Assembly (NCBI GenBank): GCA_947097615.1
Contig: CAMURX010000015.1
Span: 1 to 16,697, forward strand
DNA length: 16,697 nucleotides
Direction of reading: 5' to 3'
From: an uncultured Neisseria sp.
GTDB taxonomy: Bacteria > Pseudomonadota > Gammaproteobacteria > Burkholderiales > Neisseriaceae
In this document: positions 1 to 16,134 of the stretch, piece after piece
Numbering within the stretch: the first letter of the stretch is position 1
Layout of the letters: every line of letters starts with the position of its first letter
The notes under the pieces: generated by a model
What the model saw: the letters and a program-made list of their open reading frames with translations, nothing else
The model's database searches: none
Told to the model about the DNA's origin: nothing
Position numbers and translations under genes: made by a program

Positions 1-2
1 TC

Positions 3-143
3 AGCCGCGCCCTGCTGTACACCGCCGTCACCCGCGCGCGCGAACGTTTTGTATACGCAGGTAGCCGCGAATCCTTCGCCGCCGCCTGCGCCAACACCGA
101 AACCCGCCGCACCGCCCTGCGCGAATTCTTGGCGGCAGGGTAG
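3..143 (+). CDS. RecD/UvrD-family helicase, C-terminal end (partial)
   Basis: The window opens inside a reading frame of 46 codons ending in TAG. It begins SRALLYTAVTRARERFVYAG. The LLYTAVTRAR stretch is helicase motif VI of superfamily 1 helicases, as found at the C-terminus of RecD (exodeoxyribonuclease V alpha) and UvrD-like proteins. The arginine of this motif contacts ATP in these enzymes. The short tail after the motif fits RecD best, because RecD proteins end soon after motif VI. Only this motif is visible, so the RecD assignment is an inference and another UvrD_C helicase is possible. A DUS follows 26 bases after the stop. Confidence 0.6.
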   Translation, partial: SRALLYTAVTRARERFVYAGSRESFAAACANTETRRTALREFLAAG

Positions 144-194
144 GGCGGCAGACTGTTTTTCTGTATTAAAGGCCGTCTGAAAAGCCTTTTGCCG

Positions 195-244
195 TTGAAG
201 CTGCGCTTTCAGAAACGTCATTCCCGTGTAGGCAGGAACGGCCT
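195..244 (-). repeat. dRS3-like neisserial repeat, copy 1
   Basis: This is a 50-base unit whose core is an inverted repeat of the ATTCCCG...CGGGAA type, characteristic of the dRS3 family of neisserial intergenic repeats. It is nearly identical, in opposite orientation, to the copy at 2473-2522. The match includes a flank reading TTGAAGCTGCG then TTTCAGAAAC. It sits directly upstream of the immunity-22-like remnant. Confidence 0.75.
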
Positions 245-271
245 TCGTCCACCCCAAACTAGGAAAATTCC

Positions 272-470
272 ATGAACGAAGAATACAGATACGCCGACCG
301 TTTCAACACCGTCCACCTTTGGTTGGGCACGTTTGCCGGCACACAGGAAGAGTACGAACGCTATTTCGGGCAGGACGACCTGAACGAAGGCGAAATCTGC
401 CCTTTCTGCCGCGACATCGGCCTGAATGCCGAATTATGACGAAGACTATAACAGCCTGCATCAAGGATAA
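272..470 (+). pseudogene. Immunity protein 22-like gene, 5' remnant (frameshifted)
   Basis: An ATG at 272, behind an AGGAAAATTCC ribosome site, opens a frame of 55 codons that stops at 437-439. The product holds VHLWLGTFAGTQEEYERYF and then CPFCRDIGLN. As I recall the family, Imm22/DUF4284 immunity proteins of polymorphic toxin systems start with this hydrophobic-W-G pattern and carry an FCxDIGxxWYDED motif. The expected YDEDYNSLHQG continuation is present from 432 in another frame and ends at a TAA at 468-470. One frameshift near 431 therefore breaks the motif. The missing C-terminal half appears to lie at 1505-1726, beyond an AT-rich insert. No toxin gene is adjacent, so this would be an orphan immunity gene. 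A short functional protein of 55 residues cannot be excluded. The family call is from memory, without a profile search. Confidence 0.6.
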
Positions 471-490
471 CGGCTGCGGCGGGCATAAAA

Positions 491-535
491 AGGCCGTCTG
501 AAAACGGGAAAACCAGTTTTCAGACGGCCTTTTTT
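491..535. terminator. DUS inverted-repeat terminator
   Basis: A plus-strand DUS at 491-502 and its reverse complement at 519-530 form a 12+ bp stem followed by a run of T (529-535). It would end transcription from the immunity-22-like remnant. It also marks the left side of the AT-rich insert. Confidence 0.75.
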
Positions 536-591
536 GGGGTATCAAATTTAAGAATCCGGCTTGTGGCTGCTAAATAAATTGACAAACTGTA

Positions 592-987
592 CTAATTATT
601 AAAATTAATAGTTAAGTAAGGCTTTGGCGAGTTAAAAAGGCTAGATTGAGAAAGACAATCCTCTTTGCTACAGGAGAAAAAAGAAATAGAAATACGAATA
701 TTTTTATTTTTTTCTATTAGATTTAATGATTCTTTGATAAAAAAGTCAGTACTGGTCATACATGACGAATATATATTTAAGGCAATTCCAGATTTCAAAG
801 GCTCAATTAACATATGCTCATTTTGACAAGTTTTATTTTCTTTCCTATATAATTCATGATGTTTAATTATATCCAATCCATCAGAGTAAAAAGTCCTATC
901 TTCACAGCCATTTAACAGGAGAAAACAGGATAAACAAAAAAGTATATTTAAAATATTAAATAGAATATTTTTGTATCTGAAAATCAT
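592..987 (-). CDS. Predicted lipoprotein of unknown function, AT-rich
   Basis: The 131-residue product begins with a lysine-containing N-terminus, a hydrophobic segment (about residues 8-25) and a lipobox L25-N26-G27-C28. It should therefore be exported and lipid-anchored at Cys28. The mature part has six further cysteines and ends in a hydrophobic strand-like tail. The start is supported by an AAAGG ribosome site seven bases upstream on the minus strand (995-999). I do not recognise a family. Base composition is strikingly AT-rich compared with the genes on either side, which suggests recent acquisition. It is divergent from the zinc-ribbon gene at 1146, and both lie between the two halves of the immunity-22-like gene. 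It could be a degraded or strain-specific accessory gene. Confidence 0.6.
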   Translation of the reverse strand: MIFRYKNILFNILNILFCLSCFLLLNGCEDRTFYSDGLDIIKHHELYRKENKTCQNEHMLIEPLKSGIALNIYSSCMTSTDFFIKESLNLIEKNKNIRISISFFSCSKEDCLSQSSLFNSPKPYLTINFNN

Positions 988-1145
988 TATATTGCCTTTG
1001 TTTAAGGAGTTGTACTGGAGTTGTCCTGCATTTTATACCATTCTCGCAGGATCTTAAGCTGCAGGGACGGTGTACCGAAAGTTAAACCCAAATTCCTATT
1101 TTTCCATCTGCATATCCTCAGAAATAATTAAGAAAGGAATCTCTT
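988..1145. other. Divergent intergenic region of the AT-rich insert
   Basis: This stretch should hold promoters for the lipoprotein gene (leftward) and the zinc-ribbon gene (rightward). I see a short inverted repeat TCCTGC (1024-1029) / GCAGGA (1046-1051) and the 12-mer TTAAACCCAAAT at 1082-1093, which recurs at 1451-1462. I could not assign a convincing -35/-10 pair. Confidence 0.4.
1082..1093 (+). repeat. 12-bp direct repeat, left copy
   Basis: TTAAACCCAAAT occurs here and again at 1451-1462. The two copies bracket the zinc-ribbon gene. They could be traces of an insertion or recombination event, or a chance match in AT-rich sequence. Confidence 0.5.
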
Positions 1146-1409
1146 ATGGATAAAGAAATTAAAATTTGCCCAAGATGTGAGCAAGGCTACCTTTATCATG
1201 CAAAGCCTAAATATTTCTCTGGGGAGGTCATTTTATGCGATGAATGTTATGCTATGTGGCTTGGGGATATGAAAATTTTTTACGGACAATATGGAAAAGA
1301 TTTTTATGATTATCATGAGTTTATGAAAGATAAAGGCATAGAAGAAATAAATATGTGGGAAGGAGAGCTTTTTGATCACCCATATTATGAGGATGAAAAA
1401 TTTAAATAA
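1146..1409 (+). CDS. Small zinc-ribbon protein of unknown function
   Basis: The 87-residue product has two CxxC knuckles, C8-x-x-C11 and C31-x-x-C34, separated by 19 residues. This is the layout of a rubredoxin-like or zinc-ribbon fold that binds one Zn2+. The knuckle region (residues 5-38) is followed by an acidic, tyrosine-rich tail. There is no signal peptide, so the protein should be cytoplasmic. An AAGGAAT ribosome site precedes the ATG. I do not recognise a named family. The gene is AT-rich like the divergent lipoprotein gene and unlike the chromosomal genes around it. The position inside a disrupted immunity gene makes a role in a toxin/immunity or defence context conceivable, but nothing in the sequence shows it. 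Confidence 0.65.
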   Translation: MDKEIKICPRCEQGYLYHAKPKYFSGEVILCDECYAMWLGDMKIFYGQYGKDFYDYHEFMKDKGIEEINMWEGELFDHPYYEDEKFK

Positions 1410-1450
1410 TTGATTTTCTGTTCCCCGAATTTGGGAAATACGATGATATT

Positions 1451-1462
1451 TTAAACCCAAAT
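1451..1462 (+). repeat. 12-bp direct repeat, right copy
   Basis: This is the second exact copy of TTAAACCCAAAT. It lies 41 bases after the stop of the zinc-ribbon gene and just before a DUS at 1481-1492, where the AT-rich sequence gives way to GC-rich coding sequence. Confidence 0.5.
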
Positions 1463-1504
1463 ATTATTTAAAGTAGCAATAGGCCGTCTGAATATCCGTT
1501 TTAG

Positions 1505-1726
1505 ATAGGCATCATTCCCCTGTCCGCCCGCACCGTCCCGCTTGACGAGCTGCTGTCCGAAGCCGCCGTAGACGCAGACGCCCTGGACGCCGTGCGGCAG
1601 AAATGCCGCGCACTCGGCCTGTGCGAAGGCAACGCCGTCTTGTGGTATTCTGCCCCCGAGCTGAATATCGACGCCGGCAAAAGCTACAACGGCCTGCACC
1701 ACATCGGCGAATTTCCCTGCGACTGA
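1505..1726 (+). pseudogene. Immunity protein 22-like gene, 3' remnant (no start codon)
   Basis: This frame has no usable ATG and is preceded in frame by TAG at 1502-1504. It stops with TGA at 1724-1726. It encodes 73 residues including VPLDELLSEAA, a helix with Cys pairs, AVLWYSAPEL and a C-terminal YNGLHHIGEF. From memory, Imm22-type proteins end with a similar hydrophobic strand and a YxxxxxIGxF motif. Its composition and codon use match GC-rich Neisseria coding DNA, not the AT-rich block just upstream. Joined to the 5' piece (codon 465-467 to codon 1508-1510) it would give roughly 135 residues, a sensible length for the family. I read it as the separated C-terminal half of the gene that starts at 272. 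Confidence 0.55.
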
Positions 1727-1753
1727 CCTCCCTTTTCTCCAATCTGTGACACC

Positions 1754-2197
1754 ATGCCCACCGCCACCTTCTACACCCACGTTTCCGACCCCGCCGCCTT
1801 CGCCTGCCGCCTTGTCCGCCGCGCCGCGCAAAACCCCGAGCCGCTGCTGGTGTGGACGCAGGAGCTCGGCGAACTCGAAAGCCTCGATCAAGCCCTGTGG
1901 CGCGACCCGCCCGAGGGTTTTCTGCCGCACGAAATCTGGCAGACCGACGCGGCCTTTCCGCAGGGCGTTCCCGTCGTCCTCGCCTGCGGCGCGCAACTGC
2001 CGCCGCTGCCTGCGGGCACCGTCGTTCTCAACCTCAGCCAAGACTTTTGGACGCAGGCCGCGCCGCCACCCCTGCGCGTGCTGGAAATCGTCGGCAGCAG
2101 CCTGGAAGAGCTGGCCGCCGCCCGCGACCGTTTCCGCGCCTACAAACAGGCAGGCTTCACGCTTAAACACCACAATATGCAGGGAAAGGCCGTCTGA
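1754..2197 (+). CDS. holC: DNA polymerase III chi subunit
   Basis: The 147-residue product matches the HolC family in length and pattern. It has the opening strand ATFYTHV, the AxxLVRRAAxxPEPLLVWT segment, LDQALWxDPPEGFLPHE and a C-terminal helix ending RFRAYKQAGF. Chi binds psi in the clamp-loader complex and contacts single-strand binding protein, linking the replicase to SSB-coated DNA. No strong ribosome site precedes the ATG. The gene ends inside a DUS: codons GCC-GTC-TGA are part of AGGCCGTCTGAA (2187-2198), giving the C-terminus KAV. The DUF1289 gene begins four bases after the stop, so the two are very likely co-transcribed and perhaps translationally coupled. The call is firm. Confidence 0.9.
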   Translation: MPTATFYTHVSDPAAFACRLVRRAAQNPEPLLVWTQELGELESLDQALWRDPPEGFLPHEIWQTDAAFPQGVPVVLACGAQLPPLPAGTVVLNLSQDFWTQAAPPPLRVLEIVGSSLEELAAARDRFRAYKQAGFTLKHHNMQGKAV

Positions 2198-2201
2198 AAA
2201 C

Positions 2202-2459
2202 ATGGACCAGCCCGACTTCTTCGGCATCCCCAGCCCCTGTATCGGCGTCTGCCGCGCCAACAACAAAGGCTACTGTGTCGGCTGCCTGCGCAGCCGCGAA
2301 GAGCGTCACAACTGGCTAAAAATGACCGACGGCGAACGCCACCAAACCATGCGCCTGCTCGCCCTGCGCCGCAAAAAAGTCGAACAGGCCAAATGGGAAA
2401 AAAGCCGCGATTTCGGCGTGGCACCCGAACAGGAAGACCTGGATTTCGATTTCGATTGA
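2202..2459 (+). CDS. DUF1289 family protein
   Basis: The 85-residue protein carries the DUF1289 signature: SPCIGVC (residues 11-17), GYCVGC (23-28), then a conserved R-x-x-E-x-x-x-W-x-x-M helix (about 30-41). Four cysteines (13, 17, 25, 28) suggest a metal or Fe-S site, which is commonly proposed for this family but which I cannot show. The C-terminus is acidic and ends DLDFDFD. The ATG lies four bases after the holC stop. Its own stop TGA shares its last A with a DUS at 2459-2470. Function is unknown; members are small cytoplasmic proteins widespread in Proteobacteria. Confidence 0.85.
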   Translation: MDQPDFFGIPSPCIGVCRANNKGYCVGCLRSREERHNWLKMTDGERHQTMRLLALRRKKVEQAKWEKSRDFGVAPEQEDLDFDFD

Positions 2460-2472
2460 GGCCGTCTGAAAA

Positions 2473-11995: not shown

Positions 11996-12087
11996 AAATC
12001 CATATTTATCAAATAACTGCGAGAATTTTTCACTCCGTGGCTAGACTTCGCAGGTTTTTATTGTTTTATCCGTTTGAAGGAAACCCC

Positions 12088-14466
12088 ATGAAACACAGCA
12101 AAATCACCCCGATCGCCCTGCTGGTCGGACTGATGTTCTGCAACGCCGCCCAAGCCGCCGAGGCCGAAGCGCAGGCAGCCTCCGAGCAGACTGGCACGCT
12201 CGAACAGGTTAAAGTCAAAGGGCGGCGCAGCGCGCCTGCAACGGTGGAGCGCGTCAACCGCGGCCGTATCGAACAGGAAATGATCCGCGACAACAAAGAC
12301 CTGGTGCGTTATTCCACCGACGTGGGCATTGCCGACAACGGCCGCCATCAGAAAGGCTTTGCCGTACGCGGCGTGGAGGGCAACCGCGTCGGCGTAAGCA
12401 TCGACGGCGTGAATATGCCCGATTCGGAAGAAAATTCGCTCTATTCGCGCTACGGCAACTTCAACAGCTCGCGCCTGTCGGTAGATCCCGAGCTGGTGCG
12501 CAATATCGAAATCGTCAAAGGTGCGGATTCGTTTGCCACCGGCAGCGGCGCACTCGGCGGCGGCGTGAACTACCAAACTCTGCAAGGCAGCGATTTGGTA
12601 CTGCCCGGCCGCCAATACGGCGCGATGCTCAAAAGCGGTTACAGCAGCCGCAACATCGAATGGACCAACACCGTCGGCTTCGGCGCAAACACCGACCGTT
12701 TCGATGCCGCCCTGCTTTATTCGCAGCGTCGCGGCCATGAAACCGAAAGCGCGGGCAACCGTGGCGCGGTTGTTGTCGGCGCAGGCGAAGGCGAAAACAT
12801 ACGCGGCTCGGCACGCGGCATCCCCGACCCGGCCAAACACAAATACCACAGCTTTCTGGCCAAACTCGGCTACCGCATCGGCGAAAACCACCGCATCGGC
12901 GCGTCGATTAACGGCCAGCAGGGACATAACTACACCATCGAAGAGTCCTACAACCTGTCTTCCTACAACTGGCGCGAAGCCGATGATGTGAACAAACGCC
13001 GCAACGCCAACGTGTTCTACGAATGGACTCCCGATTCCCGCGCCGTTTCGCTGGTGAAAGCCGATTTCGACTATCAGAAAACCAAAATGGCGGCGGTCAA
13101 CCACAAGGGTTCTTTCCCGATGGACTACAGCACATGGACGCGCAACTGGAATCAGAAAGACCTCGACGAAATTCTCAACCGCAGCATGGACACCCGCTTC
13201 AAACGCTTAACCCTGCGCGTGGACAGCCAGCCGTTTAACTTGGCTGGACAGCACCGCCTCTCGTTCAAAGCTTTCGGCAGCCAGCGCGATTTTGAAACGT
13301 TGAGCAAAGACGACTACTATTTCAGCGGCCGCGTCGTGCGTACATCCAGCACCATCCAGCATCCGGTCAAAACCACCAACTACGGCTTCTCGCTGGCCGA
13401 CCAAATCCAGTGGAACAACACCTTCTCCGGCCGTTTCGGCATCCGTTACGACCACACCAAAATGAAGCCGCAGGAATTGAACGCCGAATGCAACGCCTGC
13501 GACAAAACCGTGCCCGCACCGAGCACCTACAAAGGTTGGAGCGGCTTCGCGGGCTTGGGCGCACAGCTTAACCAAACCTGGCGCGTCGGCTACGATTTCA
13601 CCTCCGGCTACCGCGTGCCCAGCGCGTCGGAAGTGTATTTCACCTTCAACCACGGCGCAGGCACATGGCTGCCCAACCACCAGCTCAAAGCCGAACGCAG
13701 CACTACGCACACCCTGTCTCTGCAAGGCCGCAGCGACAAAGGCATGCTGGATTTGAACCTGTATCAGAGCAACTACAAACACTTCCTTTCGGAAGAACAG
13801 TCTGTACAAAGATCGGGTACTCCGGGATGTACCGAAATGGATGCTTATTATGGTATATGTAGTGATCCCTACAAAGAACAGCTTTACTGGCAGATGCAGA
13901 ACATCGACAAAGCCCGCATACGCGGCATCGAGTTCACAGGCCGTCTGAACGCGCACAATGTCGTCTCCGCTATTCCCGAGGGCTGGAAACTGTTCGGCTC
14001 GCTGGGTTATGCGAAAAGCAAACTGTCGGGCGACAACAGCCTCCTGTCTACCCAGCCGCTGAAAATCATCGCGGGCATCGACTACGAAAGCCCGAGCGAA
14101 AAATGGGGCGTATTCTCCCGCCTGAGCTATCTGGGCAAGAAAAAAGCCAAAGACGCTCAATACACTGTGTATGATAAAGAAGGTGGTCGTTGGAACGGCC
14201 CGTTGGTTAAATCTGTGCGCGATTATCCGTGGCTGAACAAATCCGCCGTCGTGTTCGATATGTACGGCTTCTACAAACCCGTGAAAAACCTCACCCTGCG
14301 CGCGGGCATCTACAATATGTTCAACCGCAAATACACCACATGGGATTCCCTGCGAGGCCTGTACAGCTACAGCACCACCAACTCGGTGGATGGAGAAGGT
14401 AAAGGCTTAGCACGCTACCGCGCCCCCGGCCGCAACTACTCCGTATCGCTGGAATGGAAGTTCTGA
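12088..14466 (+). CDS. hmbR: TonB-dependent haemoglobin receptor HmbR
   Basis: The 792-residue outer-membrane receptor closely resembles meningococcal HmbR. It binds haemoglobin and moves haem into the periplasm with TonB-ExbBD energy. It has a signal peptide (MKHSKITPIALLVGLMFCNA, cleaved near AQA at 21-23) and a TonB-box-like VKVKG (41-45). The plug holds RYSTDVG, GFAVRGVEGNRVGVSIDGV and VRNIEIVKGADS. The barrel includes GYRVPSASEVYF and the ending SLEWKF with terminal Phe. The frame opens at 12037, but the signal peptide and the TGAAGGAAA site at 12075 support 12088. Meningococcal hmbR has a phase-variable poly-G tract coding LGGGRHR; here residues 385-389 read LAGQH with no G run. An AT-richer patch (13795-13870) falls in a surface loop. 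An in-frame DUS (13938-13949) codes GRLN. Confidence 0.96.
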   Translation: MKHSKITPIALLVGLMFCNAAQAAEAEAQAASEQTGTLEQVKVKGRRSAPATVERVNRGRIEQEMIRDNKDLVRYSTDVGIADNGRHQKGFAVRGVEGNRVGVSIDGVNMPDSEENSLYSRYGNFNSSRLSVDPELVRNIEIVKGADSFATGSGALGGGVNYQTLQGSDLVLPGRQYGAMLKSGYSSRNIEWTNTVGFGANTDRFDAALLYSQRRGHETESAGNRGAVVVGAGEGENIRGSARGIPDPAKHKYHSFLAKLGYRIGENHRIGASINGQQGHNYTIEESYNLSSYNWREADDVNKRRNANVFYEWTPDSRAVSLVKADFDYQKTKMAAVNHKGSFPMDYSTWTRNWNQKDLDEILNRSMDTRFKRLTLRVDSQPFNLAGQHRLSFKAFGSQRDFETLSKDDYYFSGRVVRTSSTIQHPVKTTNYGFSLADQIQWNNTFSGRFGIRYDHTKMKPQELNAECNACDKTVPAPSTYKGWSGFAGLGAQLNQTWRVGYDFTSGYRVPSASEVYFTFNHGAGTWLPNHQLKAERSTTHTLSLQGRSDKGMLDLNLYQSNYKHFLSEEQSVQRSGTPGCTEMDAYYGICSDPYKEQLYWQMQNIDKARIRGIEFTGRLNAHNVVSAIPEGWKLFGSLGYAKSKLSGDNSLLSTQPLKIIAGIDYESPSEKWGVFSRLSYLGKKKAKDAQYTVYDKEGGRWNGPLVKSVRDYPWLNKSAVVFDMYGFYKPVKNLTLRAGIYNMFNRKYTTWDSLRGLYSYSTTNSVDGEGKGLARYRAPGRNYSVSLEWKF

Positions 14467-14481
14467 CCCGAAACCAAACCT

Positions 14482-14516
14482 TTCAGACGGCCTCTTATCT
14501 TCATAGGCCGTCTGAA
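14482..14516. repeat. DUS inverted pair after hmbR
   Basis: Reverse DUS at 14482-14493 and plus DUS at 14505-14516 can form a 12-bp stem with an 11-base loop, starting 15 bases after the hmbR stop. It has no T run of its own and precedes the palindromic terminator at 14522. Confidence 0.75.
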
Positions 14517-14521
14517 ACGGC

Positions 14522-14550
14522 AAAAAGGACGGCAATTGCCGTCCTTTTTT
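14522..14550. terminator. Palindromic terminator of hmbR
   Basis: AAAAAGGACGGC / GCCGTCCTTTTT around AATT is a perfect 28-base palindrome ending in a T run. It should stop transcription in both directions, so hemO needs its own promoter. Confidence 0.88.
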
Positions 14551-14576
14551 ATTTGCCCTGCCCGCCTCGCGAATCT

Positions 14577-14599
14577 GCATGGCGCGGCTCGCGCCATGC
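14577..14599. repeat. Perfect 10-bp inverted repeat, GC-rich
   Basis: GCATGGCGCG and CGCGCCATGC are exact inverted arms around GCT. No T run follows, so it is not a standard terminator. It lies between the hmbR terminator and the hemO promoter. Confidence 0.7.
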
Positions 14600-14638
14600 C
14601 ATCCTGATAATAAAAAAACGTGAAATTTGAGCAAGTTG

Positions 14639-14681
14639 ATGTAAAGAAAAATTTGCAGAGAAGGCCGTAGTCGGGGATAAT
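14639..14681 (+). promoter_or_regulatory. hemO: hemO promoter with shared upstream motif
   Basis: TTGCAG (14653-14658), 17 bases, then GATAAT (14676-14681) form a good promoter. ATGTAAAGAAAA (14639-14650) just upstream matches 11904-11915 before the hmbR promoter, and in both cases TTGCA follows. A GATAAT at 14606-14611 could be half of a Fur-type site. The leader to the ATG is about 120 bases. Confidence 0.68.
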
Positions 14682-14752
14682 CCTCACCATATCCGCAGCG
14701 AAATATTCCTATTAGCCCGAAATTTTGCCGCAATACATCTTTTTCAAACCGT

Positions 14753-14786
14753 TTCAGACGGCCTTTGCCCGCAGAGGCCGTCTGAA
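14753..14786. promoter_or_regulatory. hemO: DUS hairpin in the hemO 5' leader
   Basis: Reverse DUS (14753-14764) and plus DUS (14775-14786) form a 13-bp stem with a ten-base loop. It ends just before the AAGGAAA ribosome site, 22 bases from the start codon. No T run follows, so it should not terminate fully but could influence translation or mRNA stability. Confidence 0.6.
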
Positions 14787-14808
14787 AACACCATCACAAG
14801 GAAACACC

Positions 14809-15426
14809 ATGAGCAACGAGATGACTTTTGCCAAAAAGCTGAAAGAGCAAACCACCACCACCCACGACAGCGTCGATAATCTGGTGATGTCGGTAGAGCC
14901 TTTTGTCAGCAACGAAAACTACATCAAATTCCTGAAACTGCAATCCGTGTTCCATAAAGCGGTCGACCATATCTACAAAGACCCCGAGCTGAACAAGCTG
15001 ATCCCCGAACTCGAATATATGGCGCGTTACGATGCGGTAGTGAAAGATTTGGCCGATTTGGGCGAAAAGCCCTACGAATACGGCAAGCCGCTGCCGCACG
15101 AGACGGGTAACAAAGCCATCGGCTGGCTCTACTGCGCCGAAGGCTCGAACTTGGGCGCGGCGTTTTTGTTCAAACACGCCAAACAGCTGGCATTCGACGG
15201 CGAAAAAGGCGCGCGCCACCTTGCGCCGCATCCCGCAGGCCGCGGCAAACACTGGCGCGCTTTTGTCGAGCTGCTGAACGCGCTGCCGCTGGACGAGGCG
15301 GCGCAGGCTGAAGCCATCGAAGGCGCGCGCGAGGCGTTTGCGTTTTATAAAGTGGTGCTGCGCGAAACCTTCGGCCTGCCCGAAGGCGCGGAAGCGCCCG
15401 CCGGTATGCAGGCACACCGCCATTAA
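14809..15426 (+). CDS. hemO: Haem oxygenase HemO
   Basis: The 205-residue enzyme closely resembles meningococcal haem oxygenase (about 209 residues). It cleaves haem to biliverdin, CO and Fe2+, freeing iron from haem brought in by HmbR. The proximal haem ligand is His19 in TTTTHDSVDNLVMSV. The glycine-containing distal helix is YCAEGSNLGAAFLFKHA (108-124). ARHLAPHPAGRGKHWRAF and AFAFYKVVLRETFGL are conserved, and the C-terminal QAHRH matches the flexible haem-contacting tail of the meningococcal enzyme. The ATG has a good site, AAGGAAACACC. It is expressed from its own promoter (14653-14681) and ends at a DUS terminator. It is cytoplasmic. Confidence 0.96.
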   Translation: MSNEMTFAKKLKEQTTTTHDSVDNLVMSVEPFVSNENYIKFLKLQSVFHKAVDHIYKDPELNKLIPELEYMARYDAVVKDLADLGEKPYEYGKPLPHETGNKAIGWLYCAEGSNLGAAFLFKHAKQLAFDGEKGARHLAPHPAGRGKHWRAFVELLNALPLDEAAQAEAIEGAREAFAFYKVVLRETFGLPEGAEAPAGMQAHRH

Positions 15427-15587: not shown

Positions 15588-15830
15588 ATGCACACTATAT
15601 TTGCCGAACATGCCGTTAGCGTTACCGAACTCAAACGTAATTTCAGCGCGATCGTGCAGGAGGCCGAAGGTGTCGTGATCGTACTCAACCACAACCGTCC
15701 GGAAGCCTATCTTGTCCCTGCCCGTTTTTACGAAAAGCTGATTTCTTATATGGAAGATTTCGAAGACGCCAAAATCGTGTTGGAGCGCCAGGATTCCCCG
15801 ATCATAGAGGTATCTATCGATGATTTATAA
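15588..15830 (+). CDS. Phd/YefM-family antitoxin (StbD-like)
   Basis: The 80-residue protein has the Phd/YefM pattern. An N-terminal strand and helix (AVSVTELKRNFSAIVQEAEG, residues 9-28) form the DNA-binding dimer part. VIVLNHNRPEAYLVPARFYE (30-49) follows, and then an acidic C-terminal helix (MEDFEDAKIVLERQ) that wraps the toxin. The opening resembles StbD antitoxins. A strong ribosome site (ACGAGGAGTAAACC) precedes the ATG. The gene overlaps the toxin gene by 11 bases, the standard coupled antitoxin-first arrangement. It should neutralise the toxin and repress the operon. Confidence 0.88.
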   Translation: MHTIFAEHAVSVTELKRNFSAIVQEAEGVVIVLNHNRPEAYLVPARFYEKLISYMEDFEDAKIVLERQDSPIIEVSIDDL

Positions 15831-16134
15831 AGTTTATAAGCCGGAATATAAACTGGCATTTTGCATTGAGGCGAAAGACGAATGGAACAAACTGGATGAC
15901 GACGTCAGGCAGCAGTTGGGCAAGAAACTCAAAAAGCGTTTGGAAAACCTGCATGCGCCTTCGGAAGCCCTGCGTAATCTGTCGGGCTTCTACAAAATCA
16001 AACTCCGCCACGCGGGATGCCGCCTTATTTATCAGATGCACGGCGAAACACTCACAGTTGTCTTGGTCGGTATCGTCGGCAGGCAGGATAGGGACGCAGC
16101 CCGCAAGAAAGCGGAAAACAGGCTCGACAGCTGA
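15820..16134 (+). CDS. RelE/StbE-family toxin
   Basis: The 104-residue basic protein fits RelE. WNKLDDDVRQQLGKKLKKRL forms the helical hairpin, and GFYKIKLRHAGCRLIYQ (56-72) matches the RelE core strands. RelE toxins cut mRNA in the ribosomal A site. The catalytic lysines of E. coli RelE (K52, K54) and R61 correspond to K59, K61 and R68 here. E. coli Y87 has no counterpart (Ala or Arg, depending on one gap), and R81 aligns with R88 only in an ungapped alignment. Activity may therefore differ from classical RelE. The start ATG lies within the antitoxin's last codons, with AGAGG nine bases upstream. A DUS terminator closes the operon. Confidence 0.87.
   Translation: MIYKVYKPEYKLAFCIEAKDEWNKLDDDVRQQLGKKLKKRLENLHAPSEALRNLSGFYKIKLRHAGCRLIYQMHGETLTVVLVGIVGRQDRDAARKKAENRLDS

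What the first reader, a model, noticed from the sequence alone, without database searches (positions are those of the whole stretch)
272..1726. Immunity-22-like gene split by a 1-kb AT-rich insert
The N-terminal half of an Imm22-like protein (272-470) and a start-less C-terminal half (1505-1726) flank an AT-rich block. Joining codon 465-467 to codon 1508-1510 gives one frame reading SLHQGIIPLSARTVPLDELL, and both junctions contain AGG. There is also an upstream frameshift near 431. This looks like an orphan polymorphic-toxin immunity gene interrupted by acquired DNA. The alternative is two unrelated remnants of tandem immunity genes.
Basis: partly seen in the sequence, partly recalled or inferred. 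Interest (0 to 1): 0.72.

Follow-up and report, generated by a model that had tools for sequence, protein, structure and literature searches.

The report
Immunity gene split by imported DNA
In a bacterium of the Neisseria group, a gene that would protect against a rival's toxin has been cut in two by about 1 kb of foreign DNA that carries another toxin-protection gene without its toxin; relatives of that second gene also stand alone at other chromosomal sites in the genus.

Summary
272-449 and 1505-1726 are two parts of one Imm22 (PF14112) gene: an intact 132-aa relative, P0015 (Neisseria sp. 23W00296), matches them at 96% and 93%. The insert is 450-1504 (1,055 bp; G+C 32% against 59%). 'SLHQG' is not Imm22: 450-571 is 93% identical to the 3' end and terminator of N. 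elongata fbp. Then follow a lipoprotein gene, an IS1595-type remnant, the last six codons of a TpsA/CdiA-type toxin gene, an intact 87-aa gene, the tail of another small gene and half a DUS hairpin. The 87-aa gene has relatives in 7 of 46 Neisseria genomes: in toxin-module loci in 3, away from recognisable toxin modules in 4. Empty-site comparison shows one of these 4 as a clean insertion and supports a second less sharply. Best reading: an imported fragment carrying a toxin-free CDI immunity gene disrupted an orphan imm22. Neutralisation, expression and the import route are inferred. Orphan immunity genes are a known kind; their scatter in Neisseria is the interesting part.

The parts
272..449 (+). 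imm22, 5' part (residues 1-59 of the relative P0015); the frame changes near 431
   Evidence: PF14112 positions 1-40; 52/54 identical to P0015; YDEDY at 435-449
450..1504 (.). acquired insert, 1,055 bp, between codons 59 and 60 of the P0015 numbering; no codon lost, at most one base (an A) ambiguous
   Evidence: G+C 0.323 against 0.588 in the imm22 pieces
450..470 (+). last codons and stop of an fbp (fructose-1,6-bisphosphatase) gene: NSLHQG-stop
   Evidence: 450-571 identical to N. elongata L084:4616-4738 in 114/123 columns; that gene has both FBPase domains; ends of 30 of 46 Neisseria fbp genes read, only N. elongata's has this sequence
487..534 (.). terminator-like hairpin of two inverted DUS copies
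   Evidence: inverted repeat 487-508/513-534, 95% complementary; DUS at 491 (+) and 519 (-)
592..987 (-). 131-aa predicted lipoprotein gene (LNGC at the end of a hydrophobic N terminus), function unknown, possibly a second immunity protein
   Evidence: two relatives in the protein collection, 99% and 74%; 0 of 83 Neisseriaceae genomes, a search without a positive control
1004..1106 (-). remnant of the end of an IS1595-type insertion sequence
   Evidence: 77% to L090:5159-5058 and, for 1037-1106, 81% to L091:4988-5056, the latter inside an ORF with DDE_Tnp_IS1595
1107..1127 (+). last six codons and stop (SAYPQK) of a TpsA/CdiA-type toxin gene
   Evidence: the same ending (AYPQK-stop) closes the toxin-module genes in L085 and L087 just before relatives of the next gene; DNA similarity to relatives starts at 1107-1110
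1146..1409 (+). intact 87-aa CdiI/IORF-like immunity gene with four invariant cysteines
   Evidence: AGAAAGGA at 1131-1138, seven bases before the start codon
1415..1471 (+). tail of another small gene (FLFPEFGKYDDILNPNII-stop)
   Evidence: 12/17 identical, E=3e-06 for one comparison, to the end of a 162-aa ORF upstream of the 87-aa relative in L169
1479..1504 (+). first arm of a DUS hairpin; the second arm, present in N. dentiae, is missing and imm22 follows
   Evidence: 1410-1498 identical in 85/89 columns to N. dentiae L085
1505..1726 (+). imm22, 3' part (residues 60-132 of P0015)
   Evidence: PF14112 positions 53-118; 68/73 identical to P0015

Best explanation
An imm22 gene between recD and holC was interrupted by a 1,055-bp fragment of Neisseriaceae DNA (shown by sequence). 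The fragment begins with the 3' end and terminator of an N. elongata-type fbp gene and ends in the first arm of a DUS hairpin that, in N. dentiae, belongs to a TpsA/CdiA-type toxin locus (shown). It carries one intact immunity-type gene whose relatives stand behind toxin modules, while the toxin gene itself is reduced to its last six codons (shown). Inferred: the fragment came from another strain by natural transformation (it carries uptake sequences of the dialect used throughout the window) and joined without long homology (no imm22 codon lost, no target duplication longer than one base). Also inferred: the 87-aa protein, if made, binds and neutralises the cognate toxin of neighbouring Neisseria, and is kept because it protects, while the older, already toxin-free imm22 was dispensable. 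Whether the frame change near 431 came before or after the insertion cannot be told.
For: Imm22 parts adjoin in one intact relative. fbp end at the left edge. N. dentiae toxin-locus sequence at the right edge. Relatives of the 87-aa gene behind DUF637/PT-VENN modules in three genomes, whose toxin ends are 72-80% identical while a module followed by another small gene has no significant match to them. dN/dS 0.10-0.18 in the 4 of 8 comparisons where it could be computed. Stray copies in 4 of the 7 genomes that have the gene, one a clean insertion against four relatives with the empty site. The gene behind fbp in N. elongata also belongs to a family found beside PT-VENN modules.
Against: The DNA of an intact imm22 locus and of the donor as one piece was not found. 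The promoter scan of 150-1760 found 5 promoter-like sites against 3.8 expected in shuffles, so expression is not supported. Low dN/dS describes the family, mostly before this insertion. The left and right parts of the insert resemble different species, so the mosaic may have formed in steps. Of five relatives compared for the N. polysaccharea copy, only two have flanks that meet. No neutralisation test exists.
Confidence: 0.8

Rival explanations
1. The fragment was copied from the strain's own fbp region (duplication within one genome) rather than imported from another strain.
For: The strain's own genome is not held, so its fbp end is unknown and could carry the same sequence.
Against: 450-571 is 93% identical to N. 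elongata, while holC and its neighbour are 77% identical between the window and N. elongata; two N. elongata neighbours in the listing (G042, G046) have different fbp ends.
Confidence: 0.15
2. The insert was built in place in several steps (an fbp-tailed piece, an IS element, a toxin-locus piece), not imported as one fragment.
For: Its parts resemble different species, and an IS remnant abuts the toxin end exactly at 1106/1107.
Against: Only one pair of imm22 junctions exists; the simplest count is one event into imm22.
Confidence: 0.2
3. The insert is a transposon or site-specific mobile cassette with its own insertion machinery.
For: Clean insertion without loss of codons; an IS remnant inside; another copy of the family is also a clean insertion.
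Against: No inverted repeat links its two ends beyond DUS copies; at most one base duplicated; no intact transposase or recombinase ORF recognised in it; the inserts in G044 and G010 begin and end with other sequence.
Confidence: 0.05
4. The junctions are assembly errors.
For: The source record is unknown; three relatives of the 87-aa protein in metagenome collections look chimeric.
Against: Both halves of one gene flank the block with no codon missing, which a chimera would not produce by chance.
Confidence: 0.03
5. 272-470 and 1505-1726 are two unrelated remnants of tandem immunity genes.
For: Polyimmunity loci exist (passages of PMC3482391).
Against: Both match one protein at 96% and 93% in adjoining parts and non-overlapping profile positions.
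Confidence: 0.01

Closest known systems
Imm22 (PF14112, DUF4284) immunity proteins
   Same: Both gene pieces and P0015 match this profile; Imm22 is listed among MafI immunity proteins of Neisseria (passages of PMC4287609) and among polymorphic-toxin immunity families (passages of PMC3482391).
   Different: No toxin neighbour recognised here, and the gene is broken.
IORFs of meningococcal TPS islands / CdiI
   Same: Small gene directly behind TPS/DUF637/PT-VENN toxin modules in relatives, with gene type tied to toxin-end type; IORFs confer immunity and were proposed to be collected by recombination (passages of PMC3848433; review passages of PMC9263626).
   Different: Here the gene has left the island: it lies inside imm22 between recD and holC with only six toxin codons.
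Orphan immunity genes (T6SS immunity arrays of Vibrio cholerae; acquired interbacterial defence loci of Bacteroidales)
   Same: Immunity genes kept without the toxin after transfer (abstract of PMC5361080; search listing of PMC12247911 and PMC10470768).
   Different: Those are described as arrays beside T6SS clusters or as defence systems; the Neisseria copies here are mostly single and scattered among unrelated genes.

Membership tests
Imm22 (PF14112) | profile score above the curated cut-off of 27 bits | tested here: inconclusive
   22.3 and 20.4 bits for the two pieces; the intact relative P0015 reaches 65.8
Imm22 (PF14112) | linked polymorphic toxin gene | tested here: not met
   no such domain in the 16 window proteins scanned; not every ORF was scanned. 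It is therefore an orphan
CdiI / TPS-island IORF (87-aa gene) | lies directly downstream of a TpsA/CdiA-type toxin gene | tested here: inconclusive
   met in G020, G028 and, for the first of two tandem copies, G046; in the window only the last six toxin codons remain
CdiI / TPS-island IORF (87-aa gene) | immunity type tied to toxin-end type | tested here: met
   toxin ends upstream of the relatives in L085, L086 and L087 are 72-80% identical over 167-170 residues; the G046 module followed by a different small gene gives no significant match
CdiI / TPS-island IORF (87-aa gene) | protein neutralises its toxin | not testable with these tools
   needs an experiment
natural-transformation import in Neisseriaceae | fragment carries the DNA uptake sequence of the recipient's dialect | tested here: met
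   AGGCCGTCTGAA at 491, 519 (-) and 1481; 39 in the window against 0.01 expected. DUS is common, so this is compatible, not proof
transposon insertion | terminal inverted repeats and target-site duplication at the insert's ends | tested here: not met
   at most one base ambiguous

The most novel reading that the evidence does not exclude
Commensal Neisseria build a chromosome-wide, toxin-free library of CDI immunity genes: short transformed fragments holding one complete immunity gene and at most a few toxin codons insert cleanly and without long homology at scattered sites, even inside older immunity genes, and are kept because they protect against neighbours' TpsA/CdiA toxins.
Probability: 0.28. 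Interest if true: 0.62.

Novelty: new member of a known kind. Interest (0 to 1): 0.42.

Why it matters
It is a readable case of how a toxin-free immunity gene leaves its island: the toxin gene is cut to six codons, the immunity gene is whole, and an older orphan immunity gene is broken in the process. Since an empty site is available in close relatives of a second genome with a stray copy, and less sharply for a third, the spread of immunity against contact-dependent inhibition in a transformable genus can be traced and tested.

Tried and rejected
Two unrelated remnants: rejected. Transposon: no linked ends, no duplication. Restriction-alleviation (Lar) reading of the 87-aa protein: 18 bits against a cut-off of 28.6, outweighed by gene neighbourhood. 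PADLOC: 0 matches for three proteins. NCBIfam: 0 families for the two imm22 pieces. Rfam at gathering score: one tRNA in the window. PDB by sequence: nothing convincing for P0015 and nothing for the 87-aa protein. HolC scan of genome contigs: no relative; the DusC scan gave 63 loci. PF14112 in 21 genomes: 0, and no control genome rang; in 46 Neisseria genomes at E<=10: 8 with weak matches, 0 over the cut-off. Imm22 3' part in 83 Neisseriaceae genomes: 6 with matches at E<=0.1, not followed up. Recipient site: the recD-holC interval of N. elongata has a different gene with no Pfam match. Viral contigs: one relative of the 87-aa gene at 64% and one short partial match; none for the lipoprotein or P0015. 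Fold search of the 87-aa model: 59 matches at E<=10, none at E<=0.001. The lipoprotein model was too weak to search (mean pLDDT 60). Lipoprotein against the lipoprotein-like ORF of L086: no alignment. In one search I translated the helicase end (window 2-142) in a wrong frame; recD rests on DNA identity and NCBIfam instead.

Full report
What is there. The window is probably Neisseria chromosomal DNA. AGGCCGTCTGAA, the DNA uptake sequence (DUS; name and role recalled), occurs 39 times against 0.01 expected. The order helicase end - imm22 - holC - DUF1289-type gene (last name recalled) resembles recD - another gene - holC - the same gene in N. elongata. The window's own genome is not held.

The split gene. 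The ORF at 272-439 matches PF14112 (Immunity protein 22) positions 1-40 and the piece 1505-1726 positions 53-118; each alone is below the curated cut-off. A search with the 3' piece found one protein, P0015, 132 aa, named 'immunity 22 family protein' of Neisseria sp. 23W00296. Its residues 1-54 are 96% identical to the 5' piece and residues 60-132 are 93% identical to the 3' piece. It scores 65.8 bits against PF14112. Residues 55-59 (YDEDY) are read in the window at 435-449 in another frame, so the frame change near 431 is real. Residue 60 starts at 1505. The interruption is therefore 450-1504, 1,055 bp, with no codon lost and at most one base ambiguous. Its G+C is 32.3% against 58.8% in the gene pieces.

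The left edge. It is not: 450-571 is identical in 114 of 123 alignment columns to N. elongata (L084), where AACAGCCTGCATCAAGGATAA ends a 325-aa gene with both FBPase domains, followed by the same DUS hairpin and flank. A search of 46 Neisseria genomes with window 1-2460 listed only N. elongata for this stretch beyond the DUS hairpin, but that search scored few candidates per genome and its listing was cut. All 46 genomes have fbp; the ends of 30 were read and only N. elongata's has this sequence. For comparison, holC with its neighbour is 77% identical between the window and N. elongata.

Inside the insert. (a) A 131-aa predicted lipoprotein gene on the minus strand (592-987): two relatives in the protein collection, 99% and 74%, none in 83 Neisseriaceae genomes, a search without a positive control. 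(b) 1004-1106, the end of an IS1595-type element. (c) 1107-1127, SAYPQK-stop; AYPQK-stop also ends the toxin-module genes of L085 and L087, just before relatives of the next gene. (d) 1146-1409, an intact 87-aa gene. (e) 1415-1471, the tail of another small gene, 12/17 identical to the end of a 162-aa ORF that precedes an 87-aa relative in L169. (f) 1479-1504, the first arm of a DUS hairpin whose second arm is present in N. dentiae but not here. 1410-1498 is 85/89 identical to N. dentiae, the coding part only 201/263.

What the 87-aa gene is. The protein search gave 12 relatives, of which at least three look chimeric. Among 46 Neisseria genomes, 7 have a match. In G020 (N. dentiae) and G028 it follows directly on a gene with DUF637 and PT-VENN domains; the G028 gene also has a TPS secretion domain. 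In G046 there are two tandem copies, the first (44% identical to the window protein) directly behind such a module, the second (64%) behind a leftover toxin-gene ending. The last 167-170 residues of the three toxin proteins are 72-80% identical, while another module of G046, followed by a different small gene, gives no significant match to them. That pairing of toxin end and small gene is what was reported for meningococcal tpsA/tpsC and their IORFs, where an IORF confers immunity (passages of PMC3848433). C8, C11, C31 and C34 are invariant in 16 sequences. dN/dS between the window copy and relatives is 0.10-0.18 in four of eight comparisons; in the other four synonymous change is saturated. 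The best AlphaFold2 model has mean pLDDT 85, the other four 61-71, and Foldseek found nothing with E<=0.001 in the PDB. By neighbourhood I call it a CdiI/IORF-like immunity gene. Neutralisation is untested. A purine-rich stretch AGAAAGGA lies seven bases before its start, but promoter-like sites are no more frequent than in shuffles (5 against 3.8).

The same gene without a toxin. In the other 4 of the 7 genomes the stretches seen hold no recognisable toxin module (names here recalled from sequence): G044 upstream of an sdhC-like gene, G010 (N. polysaccharea) upstream of a tonB-like gene, G003 between a hemerythrin-like and a YdcF-like gene, and G002 near a tyrS-like gene with stops inside the match. 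For G003 and G002 only about 1.5 kb on each side or less was seen. Empty sites were compared for two. In G044 a 644-bp insert, beginning in a toxin-gene ending (ITTAYPQK-stop) and including the immunity gene and a Correia-like repeat (name recalled), sits between GCC and TTT of a stretch that is uninterrupted in four relatives (G045, G043, G031, G039); a fifth, G027, aligned on one side only. In G010 an insert of about 350 bp is absent from five relatives, but only in two (G009, G013) do the flanks meet, with a 14-base overlap; in three about 100 bases between the flanks do not align. G003 and G002 were not resolved to the base. So there is one clean and one less sharp case besides the window.

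The donor region. In N. elongata the gene just behind fbp (155 aa, minus strand) has no Pfam or NCBIfam match. Its family has matches in 14 of 46 genomes; in G009, G013 and G032 it is 88-90% identical although fbp is only 74-75% identical there. Members lie beside PT-VENN modules in L245 and L249, and in L246 one lies beside a MutY-like gene (name recalled). So the place behind fbp in N. elongata already seems to hold an orphan immunity-type gene, which fits the fbp-tailed insert of the window.

How it most likely works. Shown: an imm22 gene is interrupted by a mosaic fragment with an intact immunity-type gene and no toxin. Inferred: import by natural transformation, joining without long homology, and retention because the protein protects against neighbours' toxins. 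The lipoprotein may be a second immunity protein, since a lipoprotein-like ORF takes the immunity position behind a module of G046, but the two are not related.

Known or new. Imm22, IORFs and orphan immunity genes are described (passages: PMC3482391; PMC4287609; PMC3848433; PMC9263626; abstract and outline: PMC5361080; search listing only: PMC12247911 and PMC10470768). In the searches, of which I saw the listings, no title or abstract start described stray IORF copies outside TPS islands in Neisseria; subscription papers are mostly not in that library. I therefore rate it a new member of a known kind, with the scatter as its most interesting side.

Noticed in passing
database proteins P0006, P0008, P0012 (relatives of window 1146-1409): Three database proteins share the 87-aa protein up to, or from, about residues 49-54 (YGKDFY) and then run into unrelated sequence. 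Assembly chimeras are likely, but all three break at about the same place.
   Followed up: no
L112-L114, L118-L131 (G069, G070, G072): Three unnamed Neisseriaceae genomes have ORFs of about 280-304 aa, most with two stretches like the 3' part of Imm22 each, up to 12 matches in one genome: they look like two-domain Imm22 proteins in several copies.
   Followed up: no
window 15588-16134: A Phd/YefM antitoxin and ParE toxin pair lies behind the heme oxygenase gene.
   Followed up: no
window 12037-15426: A TonB-dependent haemoglobin/transferrin/lactoferrin-type receptor gene is followed by a heme oxygenase gene, a likely haem-uptake unit.
   Followed up: no
L088 5050-5230 and L107 1221-1451: The stray immunity copies in G044 and G003 lie next to a repeat found many times across Neisseria genomes, Correia-like by recall.
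   Followed up: partly
L084 4758-5225: The gene behind fbp in N. elongata belongs to a family also found beside PT-VENN toxin modules; it is 88-90% identical in species whose fbp is only 74-75% identical, which suggests transfer.
   Followed up: partly
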